64,000 nucleotides of DNA from IMG/VR virus record IMGVR_UViG_3300027861_000016, positions 1 through 64,000 of that record, one strand, 5' to 3'. This stretch comes from a virus. Below, piece after piece: positions 42,131-61,382 of this stretch (positions are counted from its first letter, which is position 1; each line of letters starts with the position of its first letter). The translations under genes and the position numbers were made by a program. The notes under the pieces were generated by a model. That model was given only the letters and a program-made list of their open reading frames with translations, was not told the DNA's origin and did not search any database.

Positions 42131-44479
42131 TTACTTTTGTCCTACAACTTTATTTTTTAGAGCTGTGGCATTCTTCTCTTTCTCAATCTTCTCTTTAGAC
42201 TTGATCTCTTCTCTCTTCAAGTTTCTATCTTTCTCTTTATTCAAGTTATCAGAATTTATCTTAGACTGCTCAAGAGCAGTAGAAGCATAATCAAATACTT
42301 CTACAGTTCCGCTATCTTGAGTGTCTGTATCGAATCCAGCAGATTTCATTGCCTCTACTTGTATCTTATTCTCTCTATCTAATTGATTTTGGTCTGCTTC
42401 AAATTGTTGAGCAGCTTGTTGTAATTGTTGAGCACCTTCTCTTTCAGCTTCAGCTTGTTGTTGTTCTGCTGCTTTCTTATTAGTCTCAGCATCTTTAATA
42501 GCATGAGATATTTCAGCAATAGAATTAGATTTAACTAAATCAACTATACCTGAGAATTCAACCATTCCAGATGATAAAGCTGTCTCACCTAATCTTTCTA
42601 ACTTATTAAGTATGTCTCTATCTTTGCCAGAGTTAGTAATGAATACTCCATAATCAGAATCGGGAAACTTTTCCATATCTATATCCATAAATACTCTAGA
42701 TATATCATTCATTACATAAGTTAGTTTCTTCTTACCTTGATAAGCAAATTTAGATACTTCTAATAATGCTGTAAGAACATCTTTCTTAACTATGTTATGT
42801 TGGTAGAACCAAGGTTCGGTTATGTATGTTGAATTGGCTATTGCTGCTTGAGTTCCAGAAGCTGTTTCAGAAGCTTTAGTTTGACCTTCTCTTTGTGGAG
42901 TAATACCAATTACTTTATCTATCAATTGTTCAATCTTACTAAGTATATTAATATACTGCCCTACAGATTCCGACATAGCCATATCTATAGATTGGAATTG
43001 ATTAAAGTTTGGTTGTTGTTGATTCTTTCCTTCTTCTAATGAATTAATAACTGCTATATCCATGTTAGAAAACATGTACATCCATTTATTCATATCTATA
43101 CCTTCTGATCTAGGTATCTGTGCCATATCCATTACAAACTTCTTACCTTGAGCTTTATTCATTTCTCTTTCAAGATTGAACCAAGTAATCATGTACATAT
43201 ATTGAAATGGTTTTAACAAATCAACAACTGATGTAGGAAGAGTATTTGTAGTATTATGTACTTTACCTATGTAAGGTAATTGTACTTTTCTAGGATTATC
43301 CATTGAACGCCCTTGATATTCTAAAGCTGATATATTTAGATAAAGATCAGACTCTACTTTAGTTCCTTGCCATACTTCTGGAATCCAAGTCCAGTCTATA
43401 GTAACTCCTAATTCTTTCATCTCTTCAGTTAATTTGAAAGATTCATCAACCATCATAGACTCTTCAGGATTTTCAGGATCTAATAGAAATCCTATCTTCT
43501 TTAGTGACTTCCAAGTAACTGTAGATACAGTGTATAAATTATTATTAGTATTATCCTCATTAAACATATCTAATTTATGTTTAGGTAAAGCATAACCTAC
43601 TGGTTGATTTACATTAAATGATAATCCTATTTCCCCCTTATCTAATTTTCTAACTTCAGAATCAGACATGAACTCACCGTACTCATCTATAATCTGTCCA
43701 ACAGTCATTAGTCTATCTTCTCTAAACCAATCACCATCTTGAATAGTGTTGTTAGAAGGATTCTTATCATAATCACAATATAGAGGATTACAAACTCTTA
43801 CATTAGGTTCACCATTAACAATTCCTACATGAGCAATCTCATGAGAAGATATTAAAGCGTGTTCCCATAAATCTTGGAATACATTGTGTAAGTCTAATTC
43901 ATATTCTAAATACTTCAATAGATCATTAGCCCATACTTCTCTAATATCTTGAACTGAATAATTAATCCATTTCTTTAATTCTTTGAATGATTGAGGTTCT
44001 CCTTCTTGTTGTTCCGGAGGATTACCAAATTCACCTAAAGCTTTTGCAAATTCAGATTGAGCTACTTTCTTAACCATATCAGCTACCATCTTTTCTTTGA
44101 TAGTAACAGCATTACCATTTACAGCAATTGCTGAATAGTTGAAGGGTCTAGATAACTCTTCACCTTTTAAAAGATTAATCTTATTTATAATAAGGTTATA
44201 ATCTCTCATCTTAGAAGGTTGATTCAAATCCATAGATGAACCATCCATACCATAAGGCTGAGTTACATAGTTGAAATCTGCTGGATCATATATAGAATTG
44301 ACTAGTCCATAGTTTGCTTTCATTTTAGTCTTACCTGAACGAAAGCTCATATCAACTCCTGACATTCCTAATATACCGTCCACATTCTGTTCTTGCCATT
44401 TCTTAGTGTTCTTCACTGATTGTGAAACAGCTTGAGCAGGTCTTCCAATATTTTTATATATTTTTTTTGTAGTATCCAT
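42131..44479 (-). CDS. Portal protein
   Basis: This 782-residue protein is in the size range of crAss-like portals (about 750-800). The N-terminal 100 residues are basic and disordered. A portal-like core of helices and strands follows, including the wing region with DYDKNPSNNTIQDGDWF near residues 234-250 and a YMYMITWFNLEREMNKAQG helix near 430. The C-terminal 130 residues are Gln/Glu/Lys-rich and form the extended barrel helices. Its ATG overlaps the TerL stop by one base, the usual TerL-portal arrangement. It forms the dodecameric vertex through which DNA is packaged and ejected. Confidence 0.85.
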   Translation of the reverse strand: MDTTKKIYKNIGRPAQAVSQSVKNTKKWQEQNVDGILGMSGVDMSFRSGKTKMKANYGLVNSIYDPADFNYVTQPYGMDGSSMDLNQPSKMRDYNLIINKINLLKGEELSRPFNYSAIAVNGNAVTIKEKMVADMVKKVAQSEFAKALGEFGNPPEQQEGEPQSFKELKKWINYSVQDIREVWANDLLKYLEYELDLHNVFQDLWEHALISSHEIAHVGIVNGEPNVRVCNPLYCDYDKNPSNNTIQDGDWFREDRLMTVGQIIDEYGEFMSDSEVRKLDKGEIGLSFNVNQPVGYALPKHKLDMFNEDNTNNNLYTVSTVTWKSLKKIGFLLDPENPEESMMVDESFKLTEEMKELGVTIDWTWIPEVWQGTKVESDLYLNISALEYQGRSMDNPRKVQLPYIGKVHNTTNTLPTSVVDLLKPFQYMYMITWFNLEREMNKAQGKKFVMDMAQIPRSEGIDMNKWMYMFSNMDIAVINSLEEGKNQQQPNFNQFQSIDMAMSESVGQYINILSKIEQLIDKVIGITPQREGQTKASETASGTQAAIANSTYITEPWFYQHNIVKKDVLTALLEVSKFAYQGKKKLTYVMNDISRVFMDIDMEKFPDSDYGVFITNSGKDRDILNKLERLGETALSSGMVEFSGIVDLVKSNSIAEISHAIKDAETNKKAAEQQQAEAEREGAQQLQQAAQQFEADQNQLDRENKIQVEAMKSAGFDTDTQDSGTVEVFDYASTALEQSKINSDNLNKEKDRNLKREEIKSKEKIEKEKNATALKNKVVGQK

Positions 44480-47295
44480 TAATATCTATAGTTTGTATTT
44501 TGAGTTGGATTATTTGTAAAATAGTTTTCTAAGTTATCGAAGAACGCATCTACTTTAGTTTCTTTAACCATGTCTACTCTTACTTTATAATTATCTAACT
44601 TATGTGTTATTACTAATAACATTGCAATGATTCTATCAAAGTTACCAGTATCATTATAATTAATAAGTTCATCTAGTAATGGTAACGAATAAATCTTATT
44701 AAGGTTTAGTTTTCCGTCTTGATCTTCTTCCATTAACCAATCTCTAAGATACATTTCCATCTCTAACTTAATATCCTTAGTCATATGAATACCATATTGT
44801 CTGTTTACTTTAGATCCTTCTGTTGCTTTTAGAATAGTAGGAGTCTTCTTTAATAGATGTAAACATCTTTTAAATTCTAAATGATATTTTAATGTGTTCC
44901 TCTCATTCTCATATAAGTCTTTTGCATTATAATACATCAAAAGCTTTCTAACATTTTCATGATGTTCATGTGCTGTATCAGGTCTAGCTGTATATTCAGC
45001 TACTAACCAATGATTAATCTGATCTAATCCTCCAAATGTTTTATAGATATACGTAGATCCTAATGAAGTTGTTGTGGATTGATCCTGATCATATGGATCT
45101 GTTCCTGCTATGTAAAGACCAAACGGAATATTCCCTTCATTATCTTTTTTAGGATGTTCCCATATTTGTACACAGCCTGTAGTATCATCAGTCTTTTGCA
45201 TATTATATTTACAAGGAACTAATTTACCTTTTAGATCTGGTTTCCATATTACTTCATTAGCTGTATCTGGTTTTATAAATAATTCACCACATTGACCTTG
45301 AACTAATCCATCAGTTTGTATAGCTGATTGAACCCATCCTCTTTGTTCCATTAACTCTGCTGTGGGAAATATATTTGAGTTACTAACATGAAATGCTTCA
45401 GTTGGTACATCAGGGTTATTCTGTATCTCAGCTTCATATTTGTATCTATCCTTTTGATTTAGTAGCTTTTCACGTTTATCTTCTGTAAACATACTAGCTC
45501 TAGATAGATCAATGACTCCATTAGAATCTCTATATTCATCAAACTTAAACTGATAAGGTATAAAGAATCCTACATTCCCATTACCTTCCCAAATATCTTC
45601 AAAACATAAAGCATCATATCTTTCAGGATGAAAGAACATATCTTTGATTCCTTCTGATACTCCTTTACCCATATCTCCACCAGTCCCTGTTGCATAGATA
45701 GTACCAAACTTATTTAGTCCATCTTTAGTAGCATCTGTAAGTGCTGAGAATGTTTCTATAATATTAGAGAAGAATCCTACTTCCTCTAATACTATTAAGT
45801 TAGGTCCAGTACCATTACCTGCTAATGGGTTATCAGCAAATGTTCTATGATGTATTTTAGATCTAGACCCTTTAGTTACCCAGCCTCCAGGAAGTTTCTG
45901 ATCAAACGCTGCTTCTAAGAATTTACCTGGCATTAGAGATCCTCTACTTTGTTTAGCAAATGGAGAAGGTCTTTCAATACCATTGAAAGTCATATTTCCT
46001 TTTAAATTCTCTAAGATTAGTTTAGTCTTATTTAGTAAATCTCCAGAGTACTTGGAATCAATAGCTCCTACTAATGTTTCAGAAGAAGGTATAGTACCTG
46101 TATTCTTAGCATTTAGAAACATATCATAGTCAGTGGCTCCATCAAATAAATAGTTATGAACTATCATAGATCCTGCACTTCCCCAAGAGTTATGTGTAAC
46201 TACATAATCATTGACTAAGAACAAAGAATCTTTATTATCCACTCTAATACATACTGAGGGTTTTATATCTAAAGGTTTAATATCATGTATTGCACACCAA
46301 GAGACTCCTAGCTCTGGAAGATACGAAGGTATATCATATTTATAATGCTTTATACTACAATCATAATCATAAAAGAATTCAGTTCTAAAATTATCTAGTT
46401 CTAACGTTACTTCCTCTTCTGTTTTTCTGTCTCTTACTGTCCATAAATGTCCACCACCACATGTTACAGTTCTACCGTCCCTCAAAGTAACTTCATATTG
46501 TAACTGATCGTCAAAATCAATTCTCTCTAAAATAGTAGTTGGTTTACCGTCACCTCCAAAGATAATATCCCCTACCTTTACATTTTTAATAACTCTCTTT
46601 GAACCATCAATATAATGTAATAAACTATCTTCATGTAGATCTTTTCCCATACGTCTAGCTTGTATATCCACTACGTTAGAGGCATTATTCTCATATAAAG
46701 GTTTACCATAATTCTTAGGATGTATCCTTCTTAAATAATCTCTAGGATGTACAAAGGTTTTAAACTTACCGTCCTTCTTATAAGCTGTTGGGGGTATAAT
46801 AGCAAGTTCTAATTTTCTTTTATATTGTTCTTTATCTTTATTACTAAGTTCTTCTAATTCTTTTACTATATGTAAGCAAGTGATAGTATCATCCCCATCG
46901 AATCCAGAGAATCCTCTAGACTCCATATAGACATAAGCTTTCTCCCATTCTATATCTCTAAGAAATGGACTACCTAATGATTTACCTTTAGAATTAGGTA
47001 GGTTCAAAAGTATCATACAGAAATTAGTATAGAAATATAAATTACCCGGCATCCATTTACCTTCAACCCAATATCCTTCTATACACTTTCTCTTCTGTTC
47101 TTTCCAGTAATTTGTGTATTTATTTGTATGTGGATTCATGTAACTAGGAAGTTCTATAATGAACTTATTCCTATCTACACCTTTACTATGTAAACCTCTT
47201 TCAGCATATTTCCAGTAGTCACAACTAGCCAGTCTTTTATGTAATTTATCAGCAGGTACTATTTCAATTCCTGATCCGCTTTCCACTTCAGCCAT
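44479..47295 (-). CDS. terL: Terminase large subunit interrupted by an intein
   Basis: This 938-residue precursor drives DNA packaging, with an ATPase that powers translocation and a nuclease that cuts the concatemer. The P-loop ARRMGK (213-218) is followed by a 151-residue intein. The flanking exteins join as RRMGK-SWGSAG, restoring the GKS of Walker A (K218, S370). Walker B is NLIVLEEV with acidic residues E504-E505. The nuclease domain starts around IAGTDPYDQD (D733), with later acidic residues in DLYENERN and LLDELIN. The spliced protein would be 787 residues. It overlaps the upstream 104-residue gene by 37 nt and the portal gene by 1 nt. The terminase call is strong. Confidence 0.92.
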   Translation of the reverse strand: MAEVESGSGIEIVPADKLHKRLASCDYWKYAERGLHSKGVDRNKFIIELPSYMNPHTNKYTNYWKEQKRKCIEGYWVEGKWMPGNLYFYTNFCMILLNLPNSKGKSLGSPFLRDIEWEKAYVYMESRGFSGFDGDDTITCLHIVKELEELSNKDKEQYKRKLELAIIPPTAYKKDGKFKTFVHPRDYLRRIHPKNYGKPLYENNASNVVDIQARRMGKDLHEDSLLHYIDGSKRVIKNVKVGDIIFGGDGKPTTILERIDFDDQLQYEVTLRDGRTVTCGGGHLWTVRDRKTEEEVTLELDNFRTEFFYDYDCSIKHYKYDIPSYLPELGVSWCAIHDIKPLDIKPSVCIRVDNKDSLFLVNDYVVTHNSWGSAGSMIVHNYLFDGATDYDMFLNAKNTGTIPSSETLVGAIDSKYSGDLLNKTKLILENLKGNMTFNGIERPSPFAKQSRGSLMPGKFLEAAFDQKLPGGWVTKGSRSKIHHRTFADNPLAGNGTGPNLIVLEEVGFFSNIIETFSALTDATKDGLNKFGTIYATGTGGDMGKGVSEGIKDMFFHPERYDALCFEDIWEGNGNVGFFIPYQFKFDEYRDSNGVIDLSRASMFTEDKREKLLNQKDRYKYEAEIQNNPDVPTEAFHVSNSNIFPTAELMEQRGWVQSAIQTDGLVQGQCGELFIKPDTANEVIWKPDLKGKLVPCKYNMQKTDDTTGCVQIWEHPKKDNEGNIPFGLYIAGTDPYDQDQSTTTSLGSTYIYKTFGGLDQINHWLVAEYTARPDTAHEHHENVRKLLMYYNAKDLYENERNTLKYHLEFKRCLHLLKKTPTILKATEGSKVNRQYGIHMTKDIKLEMEMYLRDWLMEEDQDGKLNLNKIYSLPLLDELINYNDTGNFDRIIAMLLVITHKLDNYKVRVDMVKETKVDAFFDNLENYFTNNPTQNTNYRY
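46189..46641 (-). other. Mini-intein of class 3 type inside the TerL P-loop
   Basis: TerL residues 219-369 (151 aa) form an intein without a homing endonuclease. It begins with Asp in place of the usual Cys or Ser (D-L-H-E-D-S-L-L), followed by IKNVKVGDIIFGGDGKP. Block B is DGRTVTCGGGHLWTV, with His283 and Trp285 at B:12. Block F begins CIRVDNKDSLFLVND, with Cys349 at F:4. The end is VVTHN with Thr367 at G:5, His368 and Asn369, and Ser370 is the +1 residue. A non-nucleophilic first residue together with the Trp-Cys-Thr triad defines class 3 inteins, in which the F:4 Cys makes the first attack. Insertion is between Lys and Ser of Walker A, a favoured class 3 site. Confidence 0.93.
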
Positions 47296-61261: not shown

Positions 61262-61382
61262 AAAGGGATAGCTCAGTCTGGTAGAGCAAGGTATATTAGA
61301 CGACAAACGGTCACTAGATTTATACTTTAAAGATAAACTAAGTCGCTTACCAAGGTCGTAGGTTCAAATCCTACTCCCTTTA
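61262..61382 (+). tRNA. tRNA-like gene with a 47-nt enlarged anticodon region
   Basis: The acceptor stem is a perfect 7 bp (AAAGGGA, 61262-61268, with TCCCTTT, 61375-61381; discriminator A, no encoded CCA). The D-arm is canonical (GCTC-9 nt-GAGC, 61271-61287) and so is the T-arm (GTAGG-TTCAAAT-CCTAC, 61358-61374), with an AGGTC variable loop. Between them, GGTA (61290-61293) and TACC (61348-61351) close a region 47 nt longer than normal. Inside, CGAC/GTCG and TAG-A-TTTAT/ATAAA-CTA continue as one long hairpin capped by CTTTAAA, which has the form of an anticodon loop (UUA). It is either a tRNA with a tiny intron or insertion, or a tRNA mimic. Confidence 0.65.

What the first reader, a model, noticed from the sequence alone, without database searches (positions are those of the whole stretch)
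46189..46641. Class 3 mini-intein splitting the Walker A motif of a crAss-like terminase
The sequence shows an Asp at the first intein position, Trp two residues after the block B His, Cys at the start of block F, and Thr-His-Asn at the C-terminus before Ser. Established knowledge: this Trp-Cys-Thr triad with a non-nucleophilic first residue defines class 3 inteins, first described in mycobacterial and phage proteins. Removal restores GKS in the P-loop, so the terminase is dead until splicing. With no endonuclease domain the intein cannot home by itself, so its survival in a phage suggests either trans mobility or a regulatory use (packaging ATPase activated only after splicing).
Basis: partly seen in the sequence, partly recalled or inferred. 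Interest (0 to 1): 0.82.

Follow-up and report, generated by a model that had tools for sequence, protein, structure and literature searches.

The report
Self-splicing intein in phage packaging motor
A crAss-like phage's DNA-packaging ATPase is interrupted, inside its ATP-binding loop, by a small class 3 intein (a protein segment that cuts itself out); it is real and intact, but many phage ATPases, including those of other crAss-like phages, carry such elements at this spot, so it is a new example rather than a new phenomenon.

Summary
Minus-strand ORF 44479-47295 is a crAss-like large terminase (TerL, 938 aa). Residues 219-369 (46189-46641) are a 151-aa insert between Lys and Ser of Walker A. 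In 80 TerL loci aligned through this point the site is uninterrupted. The insert has every class 3 intein signature: non-nucleophilic residue 1 (Asp), Trp B:12, Cys F:4, terminal Thr-His-Asn, Ser +1. An AlphaFold model (pLDDT 95) matches solved class 3 inteins. No endonuclease domain is present.

It is not exceptional. Full-length class 3 inteins with LAGLIDADG endonucleases interrupt the same loop in cultured crAss-like phages DAC15/DAC17, in cr111_1 and in about a dozen IMG/VR crAss-like TerL loci, several at the identical K|S position. A class 3 mini-intein in a P-loop (Mycobacterium smegmatis DnaBi1) is already characterised. Best reading: a splicing-competent intein that lost its endonuclease. 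Splicing is inferred, not shown.

The parts
44479..47295 (-). terL ORF (938 aa): large terminase with the intein in frame
   Evidence: phrog_6681 terminase large subunit E 2.3e-108; tblastn to crAss-like TerLs E down to 2e-77
46642..47295 (-). N-extein (residues 1-218), ending in ARRMGK
   Evidence: alignment to intein-free TerLs
46642..46656 (-). N-side half of Walker A, RRMGK (residues 214-218)
46189..46641 (-). class 3 mini-intein, 151 aa (residues 219-369)
46603..46641 (-). intein block A; Asp at position 1 (46639-46641)
   Evidence: alignments A3 and A5
46435..46476 (-). intein block B (TCGGGHLWT): His B:10 at 46447-46449, Trp B:12 at 46441-46443
46297..46434 (-). linker of about 46 aa where relatives carry a LAGLIDADG endonuclease of about 200 aa; its first part (to residue 109 of the intein) still aligns with the segment that leads into the endonuclease
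   Evidence: no LAGLIDADG_3 hit in the genome
46213..46260 (-). intein block F: Cys F:4 (C349 of the ORF, C131 of the intein) at 46249-46251
46186..46212 (-). intein block G ending Thr-His-Asn, plus Ser +1 of the C-extein (46186-46188)
44479..46188 (-). C-extein (569 aa) starting SWGSAG, with the rest of the ATPase and the nuclease domain

Best explanation
The insert is a class 3 intein. After translation of the TerL precursor it folds into the Hedgehog/intein (HINT) fold. Cys131 of the intein (F:4), in a triad with His65 (B:10) and Thr149 (G:5) and packed by Trp67 (B:12), attacks the Lys-Asp bond. The N-extein is passed from Cys131 to Ser +1, Asn151 cyclises, and the exteins join as ...RRMGKSWG..., rebuilding the P-loop. 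The same serine then serves TerL as the Walker A Mg-binding residue. Biologically it is the endonuclease-less (late) stage of a homing intein: an endonuclease-bearing ancestor entered the P-loop, the endonuclease was lost, and the splicing domain persists because only a precise deletion restores an essential ATPase. Shown here: anatomy, exact insertion, complete catalytic set, fold prediction, homology, empty sites in sister phages. Inferred: that it splices, that unspliced TerL is inactive, and the direction of change (endonuclease loss).
For: In-frame insert exactly at K|S with the site empty in 80 TerL loci. Trp, Cys, Thr, His and Asn of the class 3 signature invariant in 26 of 26 aligned relatives including the window. 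hhalign 99.2% to endonuclease-bearing class 3 inteins. AF2 pLDDT 95.2 with Foldseek matches to class 3 DnaB inteins 6bs8 and 6rix and to gp41-1_WCT 6riz. Endonuclease-bearing class 3 inteins at the same K|S site of crAss-like TerLs: DAC15/DAC17, L212, L215, L216, L218-L220. Homology runs to intein residue 109, into the segment that precedes the endonuclease in full-length relatives. Intein GC, GC3 and codon usage equal those of the extein (0.316 v 0.321; 0.179 v 0.193), as for a long-resident element. Same mechanism and same kind of site proven for M. smegmatis DnaBi1 (PMC6195587) and other class 3 mini-inteins (PMC5222942).
Against: No splicing assay. No close homologue of this intein is held, so purifying selection (dN/dS) could not be measured. 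The branch is long (1.9 changes per column), which could mean relaxed constraint. An ancestral mini form, never endonuclease-bearing, cannot be excluded.
Confidence: 0.85

Rival explanations
1. Regulatory intein: splicing is conditional (for example blocked by oxidation of Cys131 or by metals), so that the packaging ATPase is switched on only under set conditions; the element is kept because of that use.
For: The M. smegmatis DnaBi1 class 3 P-loop mini-intein is inhibited by H2O2 through its catalytic cysteine (PMC6195587), and H2O2 blocks N-cleavage by MchDnaB1 (PMC7664689). The window intein has three further cysteines (61, 95, 116) besides Cys131 that could form a disulfide (read from the sequence).
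Against: Not kept in relatives: sister TerLs L015-L018 and the rest of the clade lack it. Sensitivity of a catalytic Cys is a by-product of the chemistry. No gene-context evidence.
Confidence: 0.06
2. Trans-mobile intein: a separate homing endonuclease cuts intein-less terL and spreads this mini-intein (collaborative homing).
For: Free-standing endonuclease genes flank terL in other crAss-like phages (crAss001 gp18, cr126_1, cr85_1). A GIY-YIG gene lies at G000:C1:71429-71614.
Against: Neither HNH_3 nor LAGLIDADG_3 in the 95.9-kb record. The GIY-YIG ORF is 25 kb away and looks frameshifted, its NUMOD-like tail being in another frame. No short gene beside terL in the window was matched to an endonuclease, though not every small ORF was scanned.
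Confidence: 0.05
3. Dead intein: it no longer splices and this TerL copy is non-functional.
For: Long branch in the intein tree.
Against: All catalytic residues intact, ORF open, confident fold, and no other terL seen in the genome (only one place matched, searched with intein queries).
Confidence: 0.04

Closest known systems
Class 3 P-loop intein of TerL in Bacteroides phages DAC15/DAC17 (and cr111_1; IMG/VR loci L211-L223)
   Same: Class 3 signature, host protein TerL of crAss-like phages; DAC15/DAC17 and L212, L215, L216, L218-L220 at the identical K|S junction; splicing domain 36-46% identical.
   Different: They carry a LAGLIDADG endonuclease (about 330-354 aa against 151). cr111_1, L211, L214, L217, L222 and L223 sit 1-3 residues upstream. 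Exteins are only 27% identical. They form one clade (100/100) without the window intein, though common descent is not rejected (p-AU 0.38).
Mycobacterium smegmatis DnaBi1 (PDB 6bs8) and MchDnaB1 (6rix)
   Same: Class 3 mini-inteins of about 140 aa, no endonuclease; DnaBi1 is in the P-loop with the P-loop Ser as +1 (PMC6195587). Foldseek E 9.5e-9 and 1.2e-8 to the model.
   Different: Host protein is the replicative helicase DnaB in a bacterium; 22-24% identity; position 1 is Ala.
Mycobacteriophage TerL1-a/-b inteins
   Same: P-loop insertion in a phage large terminase, TerL1-a between Lys and Thr; five TerL inteins at other sites and TerL1-b spliced when tested (PMC5050341).
   Different: Different terminase family (terminase_1) and host; TerL1-b and -c carry active endonucleases; which classes sites a and b belong to was not checked here.
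Delta-group (Suoliviridae) TerL inteins
   Same: Inteins in crAss-like TerL, reported as typical of the Delta group (PMC7886860).
   Different: Those read here (cr118_1, cr7_1, also L107) start with Cys, carry LAGLIDADG and sit at AG|CDPYD in the nuclease motif, not in the P-loop.

Membership tests
Class 3 inteins | Trp B:12, Cys F:4, Thr G:5 (WCT triplet) | tested here: met
   W285, C349, T367; the three columns are invariant in 26 of 26 aligned inteins
Class 3 inteins | No Cys/Ser/Thr nucleophile at intein position 1 | tested here: met
   Asp219 at position 1; L164 also has Asp, others Ala/Glu/Gln/Gly
Class 3 inteins | Penultimate His, terminal Asn, +1 Ser/Thr/Cys | tested here: met
   H368, N369, S370
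Class 3 inteins | HINT fold | tested here: met
   AF2 pLDDT 95.2; Foldseek matches to 6bs8, 6rix, 6riz. A prediction, not a solved structure
Class 3 inteins | In-frame insert whose removal restores a conserved host protein | tested here: met
Class 3 inteins | Splicing that strictly needs Cys F:4 (block F branched intermediate) | not testable with these tools
   needs expression and a Cys131Ala mutant
Mini-intein | No homing endonuclease domain | tested here: met
   151 aa against about 330-360 in relatives; the linker gives no LAGLIDADG_3 or HNH_3 match
Crassvirales (crAss-like phages) | TerL related to that of Crassvirales | tested here: met
   best annotated matches are Crassvirales TerLs (34.5-36% identity); phrog_6681 E 2.3e-108
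Crassvirales (crAss-like phages) | Placement inside a named family | tested here: inconclusive
   TerL falls in a large uncultured clade that joins phi14:2, away from the gut Suoliviridae and from crAss001/DAC15; tree rooted only at the midpoint
Crassvirales (crAss-like phages) | Shared structural block (portal, major capsid protein and others) | tested here: inconclusive
   portal phrog_6547 E 3.5e-131 and major head phrog_11589 E 9.5e-94 lie next to terL; whether these PHROGs are confined to Crassvirales was not checked

The most novel reading that the evidence does not exclude
A domesticated, endonuclease-free class 3 intein makes phage genome packaging conditional: splicing at the Walker A Ser is held back by oxidation or metals at Cys131, so that TerL becomes active only in a reducing (anaerobic) cell.
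Probability: 0.05. Interest if true: 0.65.

Novelty: new member of a known kind. Interest (0 to 1): 0.27.

Why it matters
It adds an intact class 3 mini-intein in an environmental crAss-like TerL and shows that crAss-like TerLs are recurrent intein targets: class 3 homing inteins crowd the P-loop (K|S and 1-3 residues upstream) and class 1 inteins sit at other motifs. DAC15/DAC17 are cultured, so the effect of P-loop splicing on packaging can be tested in a living crAss-like phage. It also explains a misannotation: DAC15 TerL is called 'DarB-like antirestriction' in NC_055832. As a compact, divergent class 3 splicing domain it might be of use in protein engineering.

Tried and rejected
Close homologues of the intein or of TerL from single-sequence queries: none found, so no dN/dS. 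Search with an alignment of all class 3 inteins (A3): too divergent for patterns. Pfam and NCBIfam: nothing over the cut-offs. AF2 from the single sequence: useless (pLDDT 34); with 26 relatives it is confident. Common origin of the window intein with the crAss-TerL class 3 clade: the tree separates them but the AU test does not reject their union, so it is left open; mean identity to that clade is no higher than to other class 3 inteins (30.7 v 32.1%). Recent import judged by composition: rejected, intein and extein match. Second copy of the intein elsewhere in the genome: none. Host from TerL in GTDB genomes: three hits to MAG contigs of unrelated phyla, not informative. InBase is not held.

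Full report
Observation. The minus-strand ORF 44479-47295 encodes a 938-aa large terminase (phrog_6681, E 2.3e-108; tblastn to crAss-like TerLs at about 34-36% identity). The portal (phrog_6547) and major capsid (phrog_11589) genes lie next to it. Residues 219-369, window 46189-46641, are a 151-aa in-frame block between ARRMGK and SWGSAG. Aligned crAss-like TerLs have no block there: phi14:2 GARGGGK|SF, cr1_1 ARRKGF|SY. In 80 fetched IMG/VR or GTDB loci the TerL alignment runs through this junction without an insert, with GKS in 69, GFS in 9 and GKT in 2. The nearest TerLs, L015-L018 (51-60% identical in the C-extein), are all empty.

Identity. The block has the full class 3 set: Asp at position 1, His B:10 (283), Trp B:12 (285), Cys F:4 (349), Thr-His-Asn (367-369) and Ser +1 (370). 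The signature Trp B:12, Cys F:4, Thr G:5 is that defined for class 3 inteins in PMC5222942. In an alignment with 25 phage inteins these positions, with His B:10 and the terminal His-Asn, are invariant. A profile of 12 endonuclease-bearing class 3 inteins aligns to the window intein at 99.2% probability, E 5.8e-20. AlphaFold2 with the 26-row alignment gives pLDDT 95.2 and pTM 0.87, and Foldseek matches are intein/HINT structures, including class 3 DnaB inteins 6bs8 and 6rix and gp41-1 re-engineered to the class 3 triad, 6riz. By sequence 6riz is also the best PDB match, ahead of wild-type gp41-1. Position 1 Asp is unusual but not unique: L164 has it too.

Relatives. TerL of the cultured phages DAC15 and DAC17 has a 346-aa class 3 intein with LAGLIDADG motifs at the same K|S site. 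cr111_1 has one two residues upstream. A scan seeded with these two gave 13 IMG/VR loci (L211-L223) with DAC15-like inteins and TerL flanks: L212, L213, L215, L216, L218-L220 at K|S; L211, L214, L217, L222, L223 one to three residues upstream; L221 sits elsewhere. L229 carries a related one at another TerL site. In the window's own TerL clade, L023 and L098 have inteins starting with Cys just upstream of the P-loop, and L107 (like cr118_1 and cr7_1) has one in the nuclease motif AG|CDPYD. Class 3 P-loop inteins are in addition common in other phage ATPases: helicases, SbcC-like proteins, other terminases.

Origin. The TerL tree puts the window with L015-L018, inside an uncultured clade that joins phi14:2 and is far from DAC15. 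Every sampled relative in between is empty at K|S, and cr126_1, 77% identical to DAC15, is empty too. The window and DAC15 therefore most simply gained inteins separately. The intein tree agrees in placing the window outside the crAss-TerL class 3 clade (100/100), but the window branch is very long and the AU test does not reject their union (p 0.38), so shared ancestry of the two inteins stays open. Base composition and codon usage of the intein equal those of TerL, which speaks against a very recent import from a different genome.

Mechanism. Inferred from established class 3 chemistry (PMC5222942; PMC7664689; PMC6195587): Cys131 attacks the Lys-Asp junction, the N-extein moves to Ser +1, Asn151 cyclises, and the P-loop ...RRMGKSWG... 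is rebuilt. The P-loop Ser thus does double duty, as described for M. smegmatis DnaBi1.

Why no endonuclease. Full-length relatives have about 200 more residues between blocks B and F. The window intein still aligns through residue 109 with the segment that leads into the endonuclease, which fits a secondary loss; mini-inteins Slicko01 (142 aa) and L014 (141 aa) show that this state recurs, and the DnaBi1 linker has likewise been read as an endonuclease remnant. In the 95.9-kb genome no LAGLIDADG_3 or HNH_3 domain was found; the one GIY-YIG ORF, 25 kb away, looks frameshifted. Trans mobility and regulation are possible, but nothing here favours them.

Verdict. A correct and precise observation of a new member of a known kind. 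The individual combination (class 3 mini-intein, crAss-like TerL, K|S) was not found in the open-access papers searched, but each element is known: TerL inteins in crAss-like phages (PMC7886860), P-loop TerL inteins in mycobacteriophages (PMC5050341), class 3 P-loop mini-inteins (PMC6195587).

Noticed in passing
window 61262-61382 (+): Rfam tRNA match (48.5 bits) with intact acceptor, D and T arms but about 50 extra bases in the anticodon region; ARAGORN finds no tRNA. A tRNA carrying an insertion or a decayed one; no full-length match among phage records.
   Followed up: partly
G000:C1:71416-71730 (+), L111 7416-7730 (outside the window): GIY-YIG homing-endonuclease-like ORF (127 aa) whose NUMOD-like tail GFNGSHIRSCCRGKRKTHKKFKW appears in another frame: a probable broken homing nuclease.
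   Followed up: partly
L013 1895-5227 (Bacteroides phage DAC15): DAC15 terminase with a class 3 LAGLIDADG intein at Walker A is annotated 'hypothetical protein' or, in NC_055832, 'DarB-like antirestriction'.
   Followed up: yes
L023 2444 onward; L098 2054 onward; L107 1148 onward; L125 1-3360: Further intein sites in crAss-like TerLs: DIE|CRGSGKS (L023), RG|SGKS (L098), AG|CDPYD (L107, as in cr118_1 and cr7_1), GVG|TGGS (Dulem virus 41); these inteins start with Cys.
   Followed up: partly
L004, L119, L120, L122: Annotated free-standing endonuclease genes lie beside terL in several crAss-like phages (cr6_1, cr126_1, cr85_1, crAss001 gp18).
   Followed up: no
L211 2501-3544: In-frame stop codon inside a DAC15-like TerL intein (AHPYS*EI), consistent with stop-codon recoding in that phage or with decay.
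   Followed up: no
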